DNA from: a virus
Virus record (IMG/VR): IMGVR_UViG_3300037847_000264
Span: 1-57,627 of that record
DNA: 57,627 nt
Direction: 5' to 3' (one strand)
This document shows positions 30,618-48,795 of this stretch, in pieces. The notes under the pieces were generated by a model that made no database searches, was not told the origin of the DNA, and saw nothing but the letters and a program-made list of their open reading frames with translations. The position numbers and the translations under genes were made by a program. How positions within the stretch are numbered: position 1 is the stretch's first letter; each line of letters opens with the position of its first letter.

Positions 30618-30691
30618 TGGCAGGGGTTGTAGGAATCGAACCTACAGCGATGGGTTTGGAATCCATCGTGTTACCATTACACCAAACCCCT
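30618..30691 (-). tRNA. tRNA-Trp (anticodon CCA)
   Basis: On the minus strand a 74-base cloverleaf begins AGGGGTT and closes with AACCCCT, discriminator G and encoded CCA. The D arm is GTGT/ACAC, the T arm GTAGG-TTCGATT-CCTAC. The anticodon loop TTCCAAA gives CCA (UGG codon, Trp). The anticodon stem ATGGA/CCCAT has an A-C pair next to the loop. Acceptor and discriminator agree with bacterial tRNA-Trp. It sits between early genes of the same strand, so it is co-transcribed and processed out. Confidence 0.85.
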
Positions 30692-32741: not shown

Positions 32742-32769
32742 TTGACCTTAGTAGTTAAAAAGGTATAAC
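32742..32769 (+). promoter_or_regulatory. Promoter with TATAACTA -10, possibly giving a leaderless message
   Basis: TTGACC (32742-32747), a 16-base spacer, TATAAC (32764-32769). The -10 box continues to TATAACTA, as at 37880 and 48580. A start 6-7 bases downstream would fall on the ATG at 32775. Confidence 0.5.
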
Positions 32770-32774
32770 TAAGG

Positions 32775-33026
32775 ATGTCCAAATCAAGACTGTTTGCTTC
32801 AGACAAAGTAATAGAGGAATTTTACAAAGCTCTTGCTGACAAAAACGAAGCAAAGCTACGTAGAGTACACATACCACGTTCAGATGTATTCTACATACGA
32901 GAAAAAATTTACCAAGACACAGGCATTAGGTATTCTCTTGATAGAGTAGAAAGAGCTATGTACCTTGAGGGACATCTTAATAGGTACGATGTACTAGATC
33001 CTGACAAAAAGAGAGATTGGGAATAA
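32775..33026 (+). CDS. Small conserved phage protein, 83 aa
   Basis: The first gene of the right-hand plus-strand block. The product (MSKSRLFASDKVIEEFYKAL ... YQDTGIRYSLDRVERAMYLE) is a basic helical protein. The RYSLDRVERAMYLEGHL end looks like a winged-helix or HTH recognition region and is familiar from marine phages, but unnamed. AAGG is only 1 base from the ATG, which is poor spacing. Its stop overlaps the next ATG (TAATG). Confidence 0.65.
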   Translation: MSKSRLFASDKVIEEFYKALADKNEAKLRRVHIPRSDVFYIREKIYQDTGIRYSLDRVERAMYLEGHLNRYDVLDPDKKRDWE

Positions 33027-33328
33027 TGGTAGAAGAGTACGACTTAGATAAAAACGGAAAGTTAGACGCAGAAGAGCGTGAGATCTATCTTGAAGATAGA
33101 CGTAGAAAGATGGAAGACGAAGATGCCAAGCGTGATGCCCAGCGCAACATGACTTGGTTTGCTCTTTCAGGAATGGTACTCTATCCAATGGGTATCTTTC
33201 TTTGTACATTACTTAACATGGATACAGCAGCAATGTTGATAGCAGACATAGCTAACATCTATGTGGTATCTGTATCAGCACTCGTTGGTGCATACTTTGG
33301 ATTCAATGCAATAGGAAATAAAAAATGA
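33026..33328 (+). CDS. EF-hand plus two-span membrane protein (holin-like)
   Basis: A 100-residue protein; ATG 33026 overlaps the upstream TAA. Residues 6-17, DLDKNGKLDAEE, fit a calcium-binding EF-hand loop (Asp-X-Asp-X-Asn-Gly-X-Leu-Asp-X-X-Glu pattern). A very charged helix follows (DRRRKMEDEDAKRDAQR). Two hydrophobic segments (about 45-65 and 70-92) make it an integral membrane protein. It directly precedes a GTA-type holin and an endolysin, so it is probably a lysis accessory or second holin, perhaps sensing divalent cations. Confidence 0.7.
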   Translation: MVEEYDLDKNGKLDAEEREIYLEDRRRKMEDEDAKRDAQRNMTWFALSGMVLYPMGIFLCTLLNMDTAAMLIADIANIYVVSVSALVGAYFGFNAIGNKK

Positions 33329-33711
33329 TACAAGGTTTGATTGGACCTATAGCAAATTTAGCAGGGACATGGTTAAATGGAAAAGTTGAAACAAAAGCTG
33401 CAGAGACTAAAGCAAAAGTTGCCAAAGCTGAAGCTGAAGCGCAGATTATGCTGTCTCGTGCAACCAGTGAGGCAGATTGGGAAAAGATTATGGCACAAGG
33501 TAGCCAAGCTTCGTGGAAAGACGAATGGCTAACTATCCTATTTTCAATTCCATTAATACTAGCCTTTCTACCTTTTGAATGGGCAGACGCAGCTGTAGCT
33601 AATGGCTTTGCTGCTTTGGAGACTATGCCTCAGTGGTATAGCTATACACTTGGAGTAATCGTAGCGGCCAGCTTTGGTGTAAGGTCAGCTACTAAGTTTT
33701 TTGGGAAATAG
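33325..33711 (+). CDS. Holin of the gene-transfer-agent 3-TM type
   Basis: A 128-residue protein. The Lys/Ala/Glu-rich amphipathic head (residues 20-55, KVETKAAETKAKVAKAEAEA) is followed by SQASWKDEWLTILFSIPLIL and a second hydrophobic helix (YSYTLGVIVAASFGVRSATK). The SWKDEW entry and ASFGVR exit motifs are those I associate with the GTA_holin_3TM family, common in alphaproteobacteria and their phages. It would open the inner membrane to let the neighbouring endolysin reach the wall. Confidence 0.75.
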   Translation: MIQGLIGPIANLAGTWLNGKVETKAAETKAKVAKAEAEAQIMLSRATSEADWEKIMAQGSQASWKDEWLTILFSIPLILAFLPFEWADAAVANGFAALETMPQWYSYTLGVIVAASFGVRSATKFFGK

Positions 33712-33713
33712 AC

Positions 33714-34169
33714 ATGGCATTTAAATTAAGCAGACGTAGCCTTGATAGGCTAGAGGGTGTTGACGATAGAATGGTAGCAGTTGTTAAACATGCTATCACA
33801 GCTACTAACACCGACTTCGGGGTTATCCAAGGTATGAGAACTCTGGAACAACAAAAAGAATTAGTTGCAAAAGGCGCAAGCCAAACCATGAAGAGTAAGC
33901 ATTTAGAGGGACTAGCAGTAGATCTTATGGCTTATATCAATGGTCGTGGCTCTTGGGAGTTAAACCTATATGATGACTTAGCAGATGCTATGAAAGAAGG
34001 TGCAAACTTTGTAGGTTGTAAGGTTCGTTGGGGAGCAGCTTGGCACATAGACAATATCGGTGAGTACGAAGGTTCTATGGAAGAAGCTATGAATGAATAT
34101 ATTGATCTACGTAGATCTCAAGGACGTAGACCTTTTATTGATGGGCCACATTTTGAGTTGATGGTGTAG
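33714..34169 (+). CDS. M15 peptidase endolysin (D-Ala / L-Ala-D-Glu type)
   Basis: A 151-residue, single-domain protein. Zinc ligands fit His63 and Asp70 (SKHLEGLAVD) and His146 in the terminal GPHFELMV. RRSLDRLEGVDDRM and GMRTLEQQKELVAKGAS are typical of the M15C endopeptidase family. It cuts the peptide part of peptidoglycan. There is no signal sequence, so it depends on the holin three bases upstream. Confidence 0.85.
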   Translation: MAFKLSRRSLDRLEGVDDRMVAVVKHAITATNTDFGVIQGMRTLEQQKELVAKGASQTMKSKHLEGLAVDLMAYINGRGSWELNLYDDLADAMKEGANFVGCKVRWGAAWHIDNIGEYEGSMEEAMNEYIDLRRSQGRRPFIDGPHFELMV

Positions 34170-34171
34170 GT

Positions 34172-34456
34172 ATGGCAACAACTAAAGATGTAGAAAATTT
34201 AAGTAACGGTAGAAAAAAATATCGTGGTGAAATCTATCCAGGATATAACAAACCAAAGAAAACACCTGGCGGAGCTAAGAAATCTGCAGTGTTAGCAAAG
34301 AAAGGCGACCAAGTAAAGGTTGTTCGTTTTGGTGATCCCAACATGTCTATTAAAAAGGATCAGCCAGCTAGACGTAAAAGTTTTAGGGCTAGACATAATT
34401 GCGATACAGCAACTGACAAATTTACTGCAAGGTATTGGTCGTGTAAGGCTTGGTAA
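34172..34456 (+). CDS. Small basic conserved phage protein, 94 aa
   Basis: A Lys/Arg-rich protein (NGRKKYRGEIYPGYNKPKKT ... ARRKSFRARHNCDTATDKFT) ending ARYWSCKAW. The VVRFGDPNMSIKK ... RRKSFRARHNC ... YWSCKAW pattern is well conserved in marine phages; I associate it with DUF6321. The paired Cys and strong basic charge suggest nucleic-acid or capsid contact. It is the first of a run of very basic small genes. Its stop overlaps the next ATG. Confidence 0.7.
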   Translation: MATTKDVENLSNGRKKYRGEIYPGYNKPKKTPGGAKKSAVLAKKGDQVKVVRFGDPNMSIKKDQPARRKSFRARHNCDTATDKFTARYWSCKAW

Positions 34457-34644
34457 TGTGGCTTGCTATGGTATTAGCTTGCAGTACACCATACGCTCAG
34501 TCGTGCATAGTATTTGCAAAGAATGAAGAATTATTTATGACAGAAGAACTGTGTAAAGAAGAAACAGATAGAGTTACGCTTATGATGCAATCTCAAGGAA
34601 CATTTGCTAGACCTGCCTGTTTTAAAATCGGAACAAACTTATAG
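34456..34644 (+). CDS. Small exported Cys-rich protein or lipoprotein, 62 aa
   Basis: ATG 34456 overlaps the upstream stop. The N-terminal MWLAMVLACSTPYAQSC is a short signal region: either cleaved after Ala-Gln-Ala-type residues or lipidated at Cys9 (VLAC). Three further Cys follow in the mature part (TEELCKEETDRV, RPACFKIG), so disulphides are likely in the periplasm. Next to holin and endolysin it could be an outer-membrane spanin-like lipoprotein, but there is no proline-rich region to support it. Confidence 0.55.
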   Translation: MWLAMVLACSTPYAQSCIVFAKNEELFMTEELCKEETDRVTLMMQSQGTFARPACFKIGTNL

Positions 34645-34653
34645 GAGTATAAA

Positions 34654-35004
34654 ATGAAAAAATTATTACTGGCATCTGCATTTGCAGTTGCAGCTACATC
34701 GGTATCGGCTATTGATCTAGGTTATGGATTATCTGTTGGTGCTGAAACAGATATGAGTTATACAACAGGAACAGAAACATGGGAACTGGATGTTACCCCT
34801 AAACTAAGTATGGGTGCATACGGAGTTTCTTTTTCTGCTGAAACAACTGTAGATGTGTTAGACATTAACAATGGTGACATCTTTACAGGAGTAGACTGGA
34901 AAGCTGAATACGCTTGGAAAGGTCTAACAACATACACGGAAGTATCATCAGATGCTGACTTTGAATTTGGTGATATCACAATGGGTGCTAAGTTTAAATT
35001 TTAA
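34654..35004 (+). CDS. Small outer-membrane beta-barrel-like protein with signal peptide
   Basis: A 116-residue protein. MKKLLLASAFAVAATSVSA is a classical signal peptide with predicted cut after Ala19. The mature part alternates polar and hydrophobic residues in several strands (LGYGLSVGAETDMSY, LSMGAYGVSFSAE, AEYAWKGLTTYTEV) and ends ITMGAKFKF, with the terminal aromatic residue typical of proteins delivered to the outer membrane by BamA. About eight strands would fit. It could block superinfection or help lysis. It is unusual for a phage to encode one. Confidence 0.65.
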   Translation: MKKLLLASAFAVAATSVSAIDLGYGLSVGAETDMSYTTGTETWELDVTPKLSMGAYGVSFSAETTVDVLDINNGDIFTGVDWKAEYAWKGLTTYTEVSSDADFEFGDITMGAKFKF

Positions 35005-35016
35005 TCGGTGAGTAAA

Positions 35017-35226
35017 ATGACAGAAGAACAACTAGAAAAAGAAATCCAAGAAAAGCAACAGCAACTTCATGAACTTCGTTATGGAGAGATTGATAAAGCT
35101 TATGCTGAGTTTCAAGATGCACGAAAGGTTGCATTAGAAAAATATGAAGCTTGGAGAGAAGCTTGTCAAAAGCATGGCTCTTCTCCTAATAGTATTATGT
35201 ATTACTTCAACACTTGGAAATTCTGA
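35017..35226 (+). CDS. Small helical coiled-coil protein, 69 aa
   Basis: I take ATG 35017, preceded by GGTGAG about 6 bases away, over the GTG at 35008. The product is one long charged helix (EEQLEKEIQEKQQQLHELRY ... ARKVALEKYEAWREACQKHG) with a single Cys. It resembles small coiled-coil phage proteins of unknown role. Its stop overlaps the next ATG. Confidence 0.58.
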   Translation: MTEEQLEKEIQEKQQQLHELRYGEIDKAYAEFQDARKVALEKYEAWREACQKHGSSPNSIMYYFNTWKF

Positions 35227-35405
35227 TGCCTAAGAAAAAGAGTACAGTAAATGCTGCTGGTAACTACACTAAACCAACCATGCGTAAAAACTTGGTCGCA
35301 AAGATCAAGGCAGGTTCAAAAGGTGGCAAGCCTGGACAATGGTCAGCGAGAAAAGCGCAGATGGTTGCCAAACAATACAAAGCAAAAGGGGGAGGCTACA
35401 GGTAA
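35226..35405 (+). CDS. Small very basic protein, 59 aa
   Basis: ATG 35226 overlaps the upstream TGA. The product (MPKKKSTVNAAGNYTKPTMR ... KGGKPGQWSARKAQMVAKQY) is strongly basic, without acidic clusters, and ends KAKGGGYR. Widespread in marine phages in this position; the KGGKPGQWSARKAQM core looks conserved. A DNA-condensing or head-associated role is plausible from charge. Its stop overlaps the next ATG. Confidence 0.65.
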   Translation: MPKKKSTVNAAGNYTKPTMRKNLVAKIKAGSKGGKPGQWSARKAQMVAKQYKAKGGGYR

Positions 35406-35698
35406 TGAAGGCTCCCCAAAAGTCTCTGAAAAAGTGGACAAAGCAAAAGTGGCGAACCAAAAGTGGGAAGCCTAGTTCTAAAACTGGTGAACGTTATTTA
35501 CCTACTGCGGCTATTAAGTCTCTTAGCAGCGCTGAGTATGCCGCTACAACCAGAGCTAAACGAAAAGGCACGAAGGCAGGTAAGCAGCATGTGGCTCAAC
35601 CTAAGAAAGTCGCAGAAAAAACTAAACGATTTAGAGCCGCCAAAGGTGGAGTTGTAGGCAATGGCAAAACGACCAGATCCAAAAGTAGGAACAGGTAA
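35405..35698 (+). CDS. Basic conserved protein (DUF5872-like), 97 aa
   Basis: ATG 35405 overlaps the upstream TAA. KSLKKWTKQKWRTKSGKPSS, GERYLPTAAIKSLSSAEYAA and TTRAKRKGTKAGKQHVAQPK form a pattern found in many environmental phages that I associate with DUF5872. It is highly basic, so nucleic-acid binding is likely. It overlaps the next gene by 38 bases. Confidence 0.68.
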   Translation: MKAPQKSLKKWTKQKWRTKSGKPSSKTGERYLPTAAIKSLSSAEYAATTRAKRKGTKAGKQHVAQPKKVAEKTKRFRAAKGGVVGNGKTTRSKSRNR

Positions 35699-35960
35699 AA
35701 AACCTAAAGGTTCTGGACGTAGGTTATATACAGACGAGAACCCAAAAGATACAGTATCTATAAAGTTTGCTACTATAGCTGATGCAAAAGCTACTATAGC
35801 AAAAGTAAAAAGAATTAAAAAATCCTACGCAAGAAAGATTCAAATCTTGACAGTGGCGGAGCAACGTGCTAAGGTTATGGGAAAAACCGCAATAGCTAAA
35901 CTATTTAAAGAAGCTAAAGCACAGTTGCGAAGGAAACATAATGCCGTATCTAACAAGTAG
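35661..35960 (+). CDS. Basic conserved phage protein, 99 aa
   Basis: It starts MAKRPDPKVGTGKKPKGSGR, continues LYTDENPKDTVSIKFATIAD and has a helical, basic C-terminal half (TIAKVKRIKKSYARKIQILT ... EQRAKVMGKTAIAKLFKEAK). The GTGKKPKGSGRRLYTDENP segment is strongly conserved in marine phages I know. Function unknown. It overlaps both neighbouring genes (38 and 20 bases). Confidence 0.68.
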   Translation: MAKRPDPKVGTGKKPKGSGRRLYTDENPKDTVSIKFATIADAKATIAKVKRIKKSYARKIQILTVAEQRAKVMGKTAIAKLFKEAKAQLRRKHNAVSNK

Positions 35961-36621
35961 TATCCCTCACTTTAAAGCTTGGGTAAGAAGAGAATACACT
36001 AAAAACTTAGAAGAGTATCATGGAGAGTTCTTACATTGTATGGTCATTGGCGTCACTACTATGCCAAACAGGACTCTCAGCTTTCAAGTTATTTTTACAG
36101 GCTGCGAGTCTGACTTTGATGATGGTCCCAATATACATGGCGGTGCGATGTGGGCTAGATTACCTCTTGTAGCTCTTGTGGCAGACACCCCCCTAGAAGA
36201 TTGGCCAGAAGAGTTACCACCGTATCTAGCACAACCTTGGGATTGTATGTCGCACTATCACAGTGTATACAAGTTAGAACGTGCAAGCCCAGCGCCTTGG
36301 ATAGCAAAGATAGATGGAGAGTTTTATCCAGCTAAATATTATTTTACAGTAGACTACACAGATAGTGAAGTTGCTGACGATCCAGCACAACATAAACAAT
36401 CTCACGTATTAGAGTTGTTAGATGCTGGACAGTATACTGGTAACATTGTTGCGTTACCCAATAATAGAGTGAGAGTAACTCACCCAGCTTGGTTTGAAAC
36501 AGGAGAAGGCGCTCCAGACTTTAAACCAAATCAACATGTATACAACTCGAAAGAAAACGTAGACTATGTTTGGGATACGCAACGAGTTTTTAACAATTTA
36601 TATAGTGAGGAAGAATCATGA
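35941..36621 (+). CDS. Conserved protein of unknown function, 226 aa
   Basis: Unlike its basic neighbours this one is acidic: PYLTSSIPHFKAWVRREYTK, EFLHCMVIGVTTMPNRTLSF, GPNIHGGAMWARLPLVALVA, then a Trp/Pro-rich middle and WDTQRVFNNLYSEEES at the end. A beta-rich protein seen in marine podo- and myoviruses; I suspect a structural role. It overlaps both neighbours by a few bases. Confidence 0.62.
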   Translation: MPYLTSSIPHFKAWVRREYTKNLEEYHGEFLHCMVIGVTTMPNRTLSFQVIFTGCESDFDDGPNIHGGAMWARLPLVALVADTPLEDWPEELPPYLAQPWDCMSHYHSVYKLERASPAPWIAKIDGEFYPAKYYFTVDYTDSEVADDPAQHKQSHVLELLDAGQYTGNIVALPNNRVRVTHPAWFETGEGAPDFKPNQHVYNSKENVDYVWDTQRVFNNLYSEEES

Positions 36622-36959
36622 TGATGAAGAAAAAAGGTTACGCTAAGGGCGGCATGAAGAAAAAAGGAATGGCTAAAGGTGGAGCCATGATGAAAAAGAA
36701 AGGCTACGCAAAAGGTGGTTTGAAACCAGCACCAAACAAAGGTGCAGCATCACTACCTAAAAAAGTTCGCAACCAAATGGGTTTTATGAATAAAGGTGGA
36801 ATGGCTAAGAAAAAAGGTTACGCTAAAGGTGGTGCTATGATGAAGAAGAAAGCATACGCTAAAGGTGGTAAAGTAGCTATGTACAATCAAGGTGGCATGG
36901 TTAAGTCTACTGGCACAATGAATACTGGTATTAAGACTGCTAAAAACACATACAAGTAG
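36618..36959 (+). CDS. Lys/Gly/Met repeat protein, 113 aa
   Basis: Built almost entirely of repeats of the form (M)MKKKGYAKGG: at least five KKKGYAKGG or KKKGMAKGG units, with a short non-repeat centre (PAPNKGAASLPKKVRNQM). It is extremely basic and probably disordered, suited to neutralising DNA in the capsid or on its way to packaging. The underlying DNA repeats are imperfect, so the repeat is kept at protein level. Confidence 0.68.
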   Translation: MMMKKKGYAKGGMKKKGMAKGGAMMKKKGYAKGGLKPAPNKGAASLPKKVRNQMGFMNKGGMAKKKGYAKGGAMMKKKAYAKGGKVAMYNQGGMVKSTGTMNTGIKTAKNTYK

Positions 36960-36967
36960 GAAACGAT

Positions 36968-37480
36968 ATGGCTGTATCATTAAAAACATATTTAAATAAA
37001 AAACTAAAAGAAAAAGGCTTAACTGTTAAAGAAGCTAAAAAGAATGCTGGTAAATATAAGAGTATTGCTGCAGCCAAAAAAGCTGGGTCATTATATTACA
37101 CTAATAAAGAAGGTAAAGTAATGGCAGCTGTCTATGCAGAAGATCTAAAGAAAGCGTCTGTAAGACCTAAAGTTAGACCGAAAAAAGTTCCTGACAAAGC
37201 TCAAGGTCCAACTAAAGGAAGTGTAATGACACTTGATGAACAGATGGAAGTGATGGATGCTAATAGAACAACAAGACTTAGCAAACAACTACCTATGAGT
37301 ACTGCAGGAATTAGAAAGATGGTTCTTAGATCTTTGATGGAAGTTCCAGAAAATCAAAGTCAATCTTCTAGATTTAATGCTTGGTTTAAACAAAATCAAG
37401 CTAAGTATAAAAAAGAAGATGGTAGCTACAACTTATCTAAAGCTGTAAAAGATTTTTCTCTACTAACTAAAAGACGGTAA
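36968..37480 (+). CDS. Basic protein, 170 aa, function unknown
   Basis: The N-terminal region (LKTYLNKKLKEKGLTVKEAK) and YYTNKEGKVMAAVYAEDLKK look like a small LysM- or HTH-like head. A basic linker (RPKVRPKKVPDKAQGPTKGS) and a C-terminal helical part (RKMVLRSLMEVPENQSQSSR) follow. It is the last of the basic-protein run. A DNA-handling or virion role is inferred from charge and position only. Confidence 0.6.
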   Translation: MAVSLKTYLNKKLKEKGLTVKEAKKNAGKYKSIAAAKKAGSLYYTNKEGKVMAAVYAEDLKKASVRPKVRPKKVPDKAQGPTKGSVMTLDEQMEVMDANRTTRLSKQLPMSTAGIRKMVLRSLMEVPENQSQSSRFNAWFKQNQAKYKKEDGSYNLSKAVKDFSLLTKRR

Positions 37481-37485
37481 CATAT

Positions 37486-37851
37486 ATGGCAAACCCTGCT
37501 ACAGCTAAATACTTTACAAAAGCAAAGAACCTTTCAGCAACATCAGGTGGTGCAAGTGGTGATGTAGTGTATACATGTCCAAACAATCATGTGGCACTTA
37601 TTACTTTTTTGCATGTATCGAATGGAGCTACAAGTGCAAAGAAGTATAGCATACAGTGGTATGAACTTGCTACAACTACCTACCACAGTGTTGTAGACGA
37701 AGTAAGTTTAGCAGCAAGTACAAATGAAAATGTACTACAAGGTGGTGCATATCTTGCATTAGCTGCAGGTGATAAGATTATAGGATTTGAAGAAAGTAGT
37801 TCTGACTTCCACGTAACTCTGTCAGGTGCTGAGTATTACCAGCCGACATAA
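37486..37851 (+). CDS. Beta-rich decoration-like protein, 121 aa
   Basis: The product (GDVVYTCPNNHVALITFLHV ... KKYSIQWYELATTTYHSV) is all-beta in appearance, with ASTNENVLQGGAYLALAAGD and a short tail. It has the same general plan as the small tail-region protein at 57293 (central I(I/T)xxxxxN segment and a late GGAYLxxxxGDK/ DGKI turn), so both may be small virion decoration proteins. The assignment is by appearance and late-gene context. Confidence 0.58.
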   Translation: MANPATAKYFTKAKNLSATSGGASGDVVYTCPNNHVALITFLHVSNGATSAKKYSIQWYELATTTYHSVVDEVSLAASTNENVLQGGAYLALAAGDKIIGFEESSSDFHVTLSGAEYYQPT

Positions 37852-37856
37852 CGGGG

Positions 37857-37885
37857 TTGCAATATTATCTATAGTATGTTATAAC
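37857..37885 (+). promoter_or_regulatory. Promoter TTGCAA-N17-TATAAC (TATAACTA -10) for the DUF1127-like gene
   Basis: TTGCAA (37857-37862), a 17-base spacer and TATAAC (37880-37885), extended to TATAACTA as at 48580 and 32764. Transcription would start near 37892, six bases before a hairpin that covers the next ribosome site. Confidence 0.68.
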
Positions 37886-37897
37886 TATATGTGTAAA

Positions 37898-37927
37898 ACT
37901 ACTCCTGCACAAATAAAAAGGAGTAGT
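37898..37927 (+). promoter_or_regulatory. 5'-UTR hairpin that hides the ribosome binding site of the DUF1127-like gene
   Basis: ACTACTCCT (37898-37906) is the perfect complement of AGGAGTAGT (37919-37927), with a 12-base A-rich loop. The AGGAG ribosome site (37919-37923) lies wholly in the 3' arm, 7 bases before the ATG. Translation would need the stem to open, for example by heat, an RNA or protein partner, or an upstream ribosome. Confidence 0.72.
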
Positions 37928-37930
37928 GCA

Positions 37931-38092
37931 ATGAAAAAATGGTTAAAAGCTTTAGGTAAAGCTATTCAAGAAAATCAACAAAAACGTGCAGATTATAGAA
38001 TACTGCAGATGTTAAGTGACAAAGATCTGAATGACCTTGGTATAGGAAGGTCACAAATAAAAGAAGTAATTTATGGCGAGAAACCTCACTGA
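37931..38092 (+). CDS. DUF1127-like small protein, 53 aa
   Basis: ATG 37931 has AGGAG 7 bases upstream, inside a hairpin. MKKWLKALGKAIQENQQKRA leads to the DUF1127-type core RILQMLSDKDLNDLGIGRSQ followed by IKEVIYGEK. DUF1127 proteins are short Arg-rich proteins of alpha- and gammaproteobacteria linked to RNA turnover and stress or phosphate/nutrient responses. A phage copy may alter host RNA metabolism. It has its own promoter and overlaps the small terminase gene by 20 bases. Confidence 0.7.
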   Translation: MKKWLKALGKAIQENQQKRADYRILQMLSDKDLNDLGIGRSQIKEVIYGEKPH

Positions 38093-38438
38093 AAAACAAC
38101 AAGCATTTATAGATGCATTGTTTAATGAAGCTGAAGGCAACCCTGTTATGGCATTGAAAATGGCAGGGTATGCCGAAGGCACATCTACAACTACGGTTAT
38201 GGCTCCTCTTAAAGAAGAGATAGCTGAACGTACCCGTGATTTTATAGCAACTCGTGGACCTCAAGCTGTTTGGTCTATGATGCAGGTTATGAGATCCCCC
38301 ACCGACTTGGGCAATAAAGAGAAGATGGCAGCAGCTAAAGACTTTCTTGATAGAGCTGGCTTTGTAAAAACAGAAAAAGTCGAAGTTAAATCAGAAAGTC
38401 CTTTGTTTATCCTGCCTCCAAAAGCAGATGAAAACTAA
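38073..38438 (+). CDS. Terminase small subunit (probable)
   Basis: A 121-residue protein. LTEKQQAFIDALFNEAEGNP, then ALKMAGYAEGTSTTTVMAPL, fit the HTH N-terminal region of small terminases, which recognise the packaging site. The helical middle and C-terminal tail (ESPLFILPPKADEN) could contact the large subunit. It lies just before another small HTH gene and the large terminase. The order supports the call. Confidence 0.75.
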   Translation: MARNLTEKQQAFIDALFNEAEGNPVMALKMAGYAEGTSTTTVMAPLKEEIAERTRDFIATRGPQAVWSMMQVMRSPTDLGNKEKMAAAKDFLDRAGFVKTEKVEVKSESPLFILPPKADEN

Positions 38439-48557: not shown

Positions 48558-48585
48558 TTGACAATAAACAAATCAGCAGTATAAC
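48558..48585 (+). promoter_or_regulatory. Promoter TTGACA-N16-TATAAC for the major capsid gene
   Basis: TTGACA (48558-48563), a 16-base spacer and TATAAC (48580-48585), extended to TATAACTA as at 32764 and 37880. It lies five bases after the scaffold stop and explains how the capsid gene can be expressed more strongly than the scaffold. Confidence 0.75.
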
Positions 48586-48595
48586 TATGAGAATA

Positions 48596-48630
48596 GAGAC
48601 AAAAGCCTCTTGATGACTACCTTTTGTCTC
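48596..48630 (+). promoter_or_regulatory. 10-bp hairpin at the 5' end of the capsid mRNA
   Basis: GAGACAAAAG (48596-48605) is perfectly complementary to CTTTTGTCTC (48621-48630), with a 15-base loop. It starts about four bases after the expected transcription start, so it would cap the message. There is no T-run, which argues against a terminator. About 165 bases of untranslated leader remain before the ATG. Confidence 0.65.
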
Positions 48631-48795
48631 GACTCAATTTCCGAAAGTCTAAAACTAATAAGAACTACCTGCTCAAGTACAGGCCCGTTAATTATCTGGT
48701 AGGCCAACTAGATAGGAAACGCACCCTAGAAAACGAACAGCCTCTTGTCGGTGTTTAGCTTTGTAACTCGAAGCCAAATATCAGGAGGATTTACT

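What the first reader, a model, noticed from the sequence alone, without database searches (positions are those of the whole stretch)
37857..37930. Promoter plus hairpin that exactly hides the ribosome site of a DUF1127-like gene
Seen: TTGCAA-N17-TATAAC, then ACTACTCCT perfectly pairing with AGGAGTAGT, whose AGGAG is the ribosome site 7 bases from ATG. The hairpin would begin about six bases after the expected start. A perfect 9-bp pairing that covers a complete ribosome site right after a promoter is unlikely by chance. Inference: post-transcriptional switch, possibly heat- or RNA-controlled, on a gene family linked to RNA turnover.
Basis: partly seen in the sequence, partly recalled or inferred. 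Interest (0 to 1): 0.78.

Follow-up and report, generated by a model that had tools for sequence, protein, structure and literature searches.

The report
Start-site-controlled translation switch in marine phages
In front of a small gene next to the DNA-packaging genes of a dominant group of ocean viruses lies an RNA hairpin that hides the ribosome's landing site in long messages, and a promoter-like signal is placed so that messages starting there would lose half the hairpin and become readable; this on/off design has been kept through dozens of sequence changes.

Summary
At 37857-37930: TTGCAA-N17-TATAAC, then a perfect 9-bp stem whose 3' arm contains AGGAG, 7 nt before the ATG of a 53-aa DUF1127 gene upstream of terS/terL in an HMO-2011-type marine podovirus. 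I collected 230 distinct relatives of this leader (61 families). Arm sequences change almost freely, yet pairing with the ribosome site persists, so the stem is selected. In most families a -10-like element, TA(T/A)AA(C/T), abuts or overlaps the 5' arm. Half carry an extended -10 TGn, a purine sits at the expected start (offset 13), and the hidden ribosome site is freed at that point (mean opening cost 8.3 to 1.4 kcal/mol, 57/60 families). In a few families the whole 5' arm lies upstream of the -10. Best reading: start-site choice sets translation. The mechanism resembles T4 gene e and I-TevI. Heat control is unlikely. No start site has been mapped, and the inner promoter is weak in this window. 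New are its conservation, the tandem-promoter version with fixed spacing, and a second, alternative stem.

The parts
37857..37885 (+). P1 promoter: -35 TTGCAA, 17-nt spacer, -10 TATAAC; predicted start about G37893
   Evidence: in 22/22 tandem families TTG(C/A) lies exactly 17 nt before this -10. Start site inferred.
37894..37899 (+). P2 -10-like hexamer TAAAAC; predicted start G37907, right after the 5' arm
   Evidence: hexamer TATAAC/TATAAT/TAAAAC/TAAAAT in the 61 families, TGn in 31/61; TTGAC-N17-TAWAAC promoters elsewhere in these genomes. In the window itself P2 lacks TGn and a -35.
37898..37906 (+). S1 5' arm (anti-ribosome-site) ACTACTCCT
37919..37927 (+). S1 3' arm AGGAGTAGT containing the ribosome site AGGAG (37919-37923)
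37906..37910 (+). S2 5' arm TGCAC, alternative stem at the 5' end of the short transcript
37926..37930 (+). S2 3' arm GTGCA; shares bases with the S1 arms, so full S1 and full S2 exclude each other
37931..38092 (+). DUF1127 gene, 53 aa
   Evidence: (PF06568)
38073..38438 (+). putative terminase small subunit; start overlaps the end of DUF1127 and has a poor ribosome site, so translational coupling is possible
   Evidence: Terminase_2, below cut-off; PHROG 2538
32742..32771 (+). upstream promoter TTGACC-N16-TATAACTA before the lysis and small-gene block; possible source of read-through transcripts
   Evidence: no + strand terminator found at 35000-37931; the stretch 32771-35000 was not scanned

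Best explanation
The leader is a start-site-dependent translation switch. Any transcript that begins upstream of about 37900, by read-through from the lysis block or from P1, contains the anti-ribosome-site arm and folds S1, hiding AGGAG, so DUF1127 (and perhaps the overlapping terS by coupling) is not translated. A transcript that begins at P2, whose -10 overlaps the 5' arm and whose start falls just after it, lacks the arm; its ribosome site is open, and in many families its 5' end forms a second small hairpin (S2). Choice of start site, for example by phase of infection, thus sets translation. Shown by comparison: S1 is under selection, and removal of sequence up to the P2 start frees the site (modelled). 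Inferred: that P2 is used, when it is used, and that terS is coupled.
For: S1 pairing kept with changing arms: 38 families, mean duplex energy -11.7 vs -7.7 kcal/mol for swapped partners (2000 permutations, lowest -9.3); a neighbouring upstream segment shows no difference. Opening cost of the ribosome site is 8.28 kcal/mol in long RNAs and 1.44 in RNAs from the predicted P2 start; it falls by 2 or more in 57/60 families; shuffled leaders 4.0 and 3.4; short real 1.46 vs shuffled 2.95, minimum at offset 13. P2 hexamer always TA(T/A)AA(C/T); TGn in 31/61 vs 5% background; purine at offset 13 in 44/61 vs 48% background; CRP-3 and CRP-212 have TATAAT with compensating 3' arms. TTGAC-N16-19-TAWAAC matches 56 times vs 5 for the reversed control in 16 records. 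In families L344, L345, L414 and L349 the whole 5' arm lies upstream of the -10. Mutually exclusive S2: 22/42 distinct window pairs vs 12% swapped. Bacterial DUF1127 leaders show no such effect (3.91 vs 3.97 shuffled).
Against: No transcription start has been mapped. P2 lacks a -35, and in the window it is the weaker TAAAAC without TGn, whereas P1 is a complete promoter, so in this phage hairpinned RNA from P1 may dominate. L010-type and L358 leaders show no drop in opening cost; the L191, L225 and L200 types have little or no S1 and instead a short stem between ribosome site and start codon. Families are related, so counts are not independent events. Folding was computed on isolated RNA. Hexamers were located by pattern, with seven leaders assigned by hand.
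Confidence: 0.63

Rival explanations
1. P1 is the real promoter and its 5'-proximal hairpin is a conditional switch opened by temperature, a protein, a small RNA or a ligand.
For: Complete P1 in 22/61 families with exact 17-nt spacing; P1 start lies just before the hairpin; P2 is weak in the window.
Against: 39/61 families lack P1. Modelled site closed from 4 to 60 C. Arms and loops vary in sequence and length, with no conserved binding core; no Rfam match. Does not explain why the site opens at a promoter-defined point or the S2 stem.
Confidence: 0.17
2. The second TAWAAC hexamer is a sigma-dependent pause element just after the P1 start, as at lambda PR', for loading an antiterminator on the late operon; the hairpin is secondary.
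For: P1-to-P2 hexamer spacing fixed at 14 or 15 nt; packaging and structural genes follow.
Against: 39/61 families have the hexamer without P1; TGn enrichment and a purine at the expected start point to initiation; no antiterminator was searched for; does not explain S1 covariation. The lambda comparison rests on general knowledge.
Confidence: 0.08
3. The inverted repeat is a DNA operator for a regulator, not an RNA structure.
For: It overlaps promoters; a conserved CGGG element and weak dyads lie upstream.
Against: Arm sequence and arm spacing vary widely between families while pairing with the ribosome site is kept; operators conserve sequence.
Confidence: 0.05
4. Only insulation: the stem silences read-through RNA at all times to prevent mistimed translation, with P1 and P2 equivalent weak promoters and no timed switching.
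For: The stem is selected; same-strand genes abut and no terminator was found between 35000 and 37931.
Against: P1-initiated RNA would be silenced too, so P1 would be pointless; both promoters are kept at fixed spacing.
Confidence: 0.07

Closest known systems
T4 gene e (lysozyme) leader and relatives (soc, gene 49)
   Same: Stem hides the ribosome site in upstream-initiated RNA; a promoter overlapping the 5' strand of the stem makes RNA lacking it (PMC3014915).
   Different: T4 uses TATAAATA late promoters with gp55; here the motif looks like the alphaproteobacterial RpoD -10 (TANAWC-like; PMC8144410). Here there is a DUF1127/terS leader, a tandem P1 at fixed spacing in a third of families, and an alternative S2 stem.
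I-TevI, I-TevII, I-TevIII, segB and Aeh1 mobE hairpins
   Same: Same dual-transcript logic for homing endonucleases (PMC2988022).
   Different: Unrelated genes and phages; this case is preserved across 61 leader families with covarying arms.
S. meliloti duf1127-1 leader
   Same: A DUF1127 gene controlled through its mRNA leader (PMC12218461).
   Different: That is uORF-dependent, probably Rho-dependent attenuation in a bacterium; here the stem covers the ribosome site directly, and bacterial DUF1127 leaders in my sample show no hidden site.
RNA thermometers (ROSE, fourU)
   Same: Stem over the ribosome site.
   Different: Modelled site does not open within 4-60 C; the arm is CUCC, not UUUU.

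Membership tests
T4 gene e-type start-site-dependent hairpin | Stem pairs the ribosome site or start codon in long RNA | tested here: met
T4 gene e-type start-site-dependent hairpin | Internal promoter whose start lies downstream of the 5' arm | tested here: inconclusive
   Sequence signals strong across families; weak hexamer in the window; no mapped start
T4 gene e-type start-site-dependent hairpin | Upstream transcription runs into the gene | tested here: inconclusive
   Upstream promoter and no + strand terminator at 35000-37931; the P1 promoter would also do it; no RNA data
T4 gene e-type start-site-dependent hairpin | Long RNA poorly translated, short RNA well translated | not testable with these tools
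   Only opening energies
RNA thermometer | Site opens within the physiological temperature range | tested here: not met
   Modelled P(unpaired) 0.000 at 4 C to 0.011 at 60 C
Riboswitch or known RNA family | Match to a curated family | tested here: not met
DUF1127 protein family | Pfam PF06568 above its cut-off | tested here: met
   28.2 vs 23.3 bits
Lambda PR'-type paused promoter | -10-like element just after the start of a complete promoter | tested here: inconclusive
   Present in the 22 tandem families incl. the window, absent in the other 39

The most novel reading that the evidence does not exclude
In tandem families such as the window, two overlapping promoters 14-15 bp apart have opposite outputs: P1 is a dedicated promoter for a silent message and also blocks P2 by occupying the same DNA, so switching polymerase between them turns packaging-gene translation on or off. 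This would be a phage counterpart of the long undecoded transcript isoforms of eukaryotes, with S1 and S2 as the two states.
Probability: 0.22. Interest if true: 0.78.

Novelty: new variant of a known kind. Interest (0 to 1): 0.62.

Why it matters
HMO-2011-type phages are a dominant, broadly distributed marine viral group (PMC9038755), and the papers read here say nothing about how their genes are timed. The leader gives a testable handle on the timing of the packaging operon, suggests this group's promoter motif, and shows that the T4 style of switch recurs in unrelated phages, including a version with a dedicated promoter for the silent message. The covariation across 61 families makes it unusually well supported for a purely sequence-based finding.

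Tried and rejected
Rfam search, gathering and permissive: nothing. H-type pseudoknot of S1 plus S2: considered first because GCAC/GTGC covaries, rejected because the two stems share bases and there is no linker to span a 9-bp stem; read instead as alternative structures. Intrinsic terminator: no T run. RNA thermometer. DNA operator: arms vary freely. Inheritance from a bacterial DUF1127 leader: 67 bacterial leaders show no hidden site. Packaging (cos/pac) signal near terS: considered, not tested; arm variability and pairing with the ribosome site speak against it. HMO-2011 itself gave no DUF1127 hit, so the leader could not be compared there. A literature search on Caulobacter promoters failed on syntax and was replaced.

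Full report
Observation. The window is a virus record of 57,627 bases whose terL region best matches the Roseobacter phages CRP-13 and CRP-9 and Puniceispirillum phage HMO-2011. The reported elements are exactly where stated. The gene at 37931-38092 is a 53-aa DUF1127 protein; terS overlaps its end and terL follows. The stem is the only perfect inverted repeat of 9 or more bases in 37600-38100 at the settings used, RNA from the predicted P1 start folds with z = -3.3, and the ribosome site has the highest opening cost of the 45 window genes tested (9.5 kcal/mol, next 6.3, mean of the others 3.1).

Relatives. Seven viral scans and named phages gave 230 distinct leaders with a -10-like hexamer in 61 families at 80% identity. 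Sixteen leaders of the first batch had no such hexamer and were left out; most belong to other kinds of locus, but one (L115) keeps an AAACTCC/GGAGTTT stem. Different families carry entirely different arms, for example ACTACTCCT/AGGAGTAGT (window), ACTATCTCC/GGAGATAGT, GTCTCCG/CGGAGAC (CRP-13), ATCTCCATA/TATGGAGAT, TATATGTAC/GTACATATA, TATAACTCCT/AGGAGTTATA, TCTCCAGTT/AACTGGAGA and AAACTCTCCTTAGT/ACTAAGGAGAGTTT. Swapping 3' arms between families weakens pairing from -11.7 to -7.7 kcal/mol (2000 permutations, lowest -9.3), while a neighbouring upstream segment shows no difference. Bacterial DUF1127 leaders have ordinary sites (3.91 vs 3.97 shuffled), so the feature belongs to the phages.

Promoters. 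In 65 of 65 tandem leaders of the first batch (22 of 22 families overall) a TTG(C/A) lies exactly 17 nt before the first TATAAC, and a second TAWAAC follows 14-15 nt later. The other 39 families keep only the second hexamer, with TATTCC, TATGCA or TTGCA-like sequence some 31-32 nt upstream, usually after a conserved CGG. That TAWAAC is a -10 in these phages is supported by TTGAC-N16-19-TAWAAC matches elsewhere in 16 related records (56 vs 5 for the reversed pattern) and by the Caulobacter RpoD consensus GCTANAWC (PMC8144410). The second hexamer behaves as a -10: it is always TA(T/A)AA(C/T), is preceded by TGn in 31/61 families against 5% background, and a purine stands at offset 13 in 44/61 (background 48%). 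The hexamer pattern was part of the selection, so its own uniformity is not independent evidence; TGn, the purine and the structural profile are.

Structure against start site. Truncating the RNA from its 5' end leaves the site closed until the arm is lost and reaches the lowest opening cost at offset 13, the expected start (8.5 to 1.46 kcal/mol, 38 families; 8.28 to 1.44, 57 of 60 families falling by at least 2). Shuffled leaders give 4.0 and 3.4, and shuffled short leaders are less open than real ones (2.95 vs 1.46). In the window the cost falls from 9.6 to 0.1 at offsets 9-13 and rises again to 2.9 when S2 is cut. In families L344, L345, L414 and L349 the whole 5' arm lies upstream of the -10, so the inner transcript lacks it entirely. 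In many families a second stem begins at offsets 11-15; in short leaders it uses bases of the S1 3' arm (GCAC/GTGC, GTAC/GTAC, ACAC/GTGT, CGCAC/GTGCG) and pairs more often than swapped controls (22/42 vs 12%). A stem that excludes S1 is most easily explained if a transcript without the S1 arm exists.

Mechanism. The simplest account is that start-site choice sets translation. The precedent is T4 gene e, where early read-through RNA is silenced about 100-fold and late promoters within the 5' strand make open RNA (PMC3014915), and the T4 homing endonucleases (PMC2988022). A likely source of read-through is the promoter at 32742-32771 before the lysis block; no + strand terminator was found in 35000-37931. 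For the window itself there is a caveat: P1 is complete while P2 is the weak form (TAAAAC, no TGn), so the balance between them must be measured.

Limits. No start site is mapped; folding is in silico; families share ancestry; hexamers were located by pattern, with seven leaders assigned by hand; a minority (L010, L358; L191, L225 and L200 types) depart from the scheme and hide the region between ribosome site and start codon, or nothing. The role of phage DUF1127 is unknown: RNA binding is known for Rhodobacter CcaF1, but other members act differently (PMC11707872).

Noticed in passing
window 48558-48640: Promoter TTGACA-N16-TATAACTA before the major head gene (48745), followed by a leader hairpin (GAGACAAAAG...CTTTTGTCTC); CRP-13 has a similar leader with GGACTACC in the loop.
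   Followed up: partly
window 37847-37856 and relatives: A conserved CGGG element follows the stop codon of very different upstream genes and lies about 42 nt before the P2 hexamer, often with a weak dyad between; possibly an activator site or recombination boundary.
   Followed up: partly
L082:4104-4265: In Roseobacter phage CRP-13 (MW514247) the DUF1127 gene is not annotated in the GenBank record.
   Followed up: yes
window 30618-30691 (-): tRNA-Trp gene (anticodon cca).
   Followed up: no
L243, L247, L250: DUF1127-like genes in other phages without the promoter module still show a CCTCGT/ACGAGG stem over the ribosome site, with the 5' arm apparently inside the upstream gene.
   Followed up: no
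window 35941-36621: Protein matching a PHROG labelled ferredoxin / host takeover (E 1e-29).
   Followed up: no
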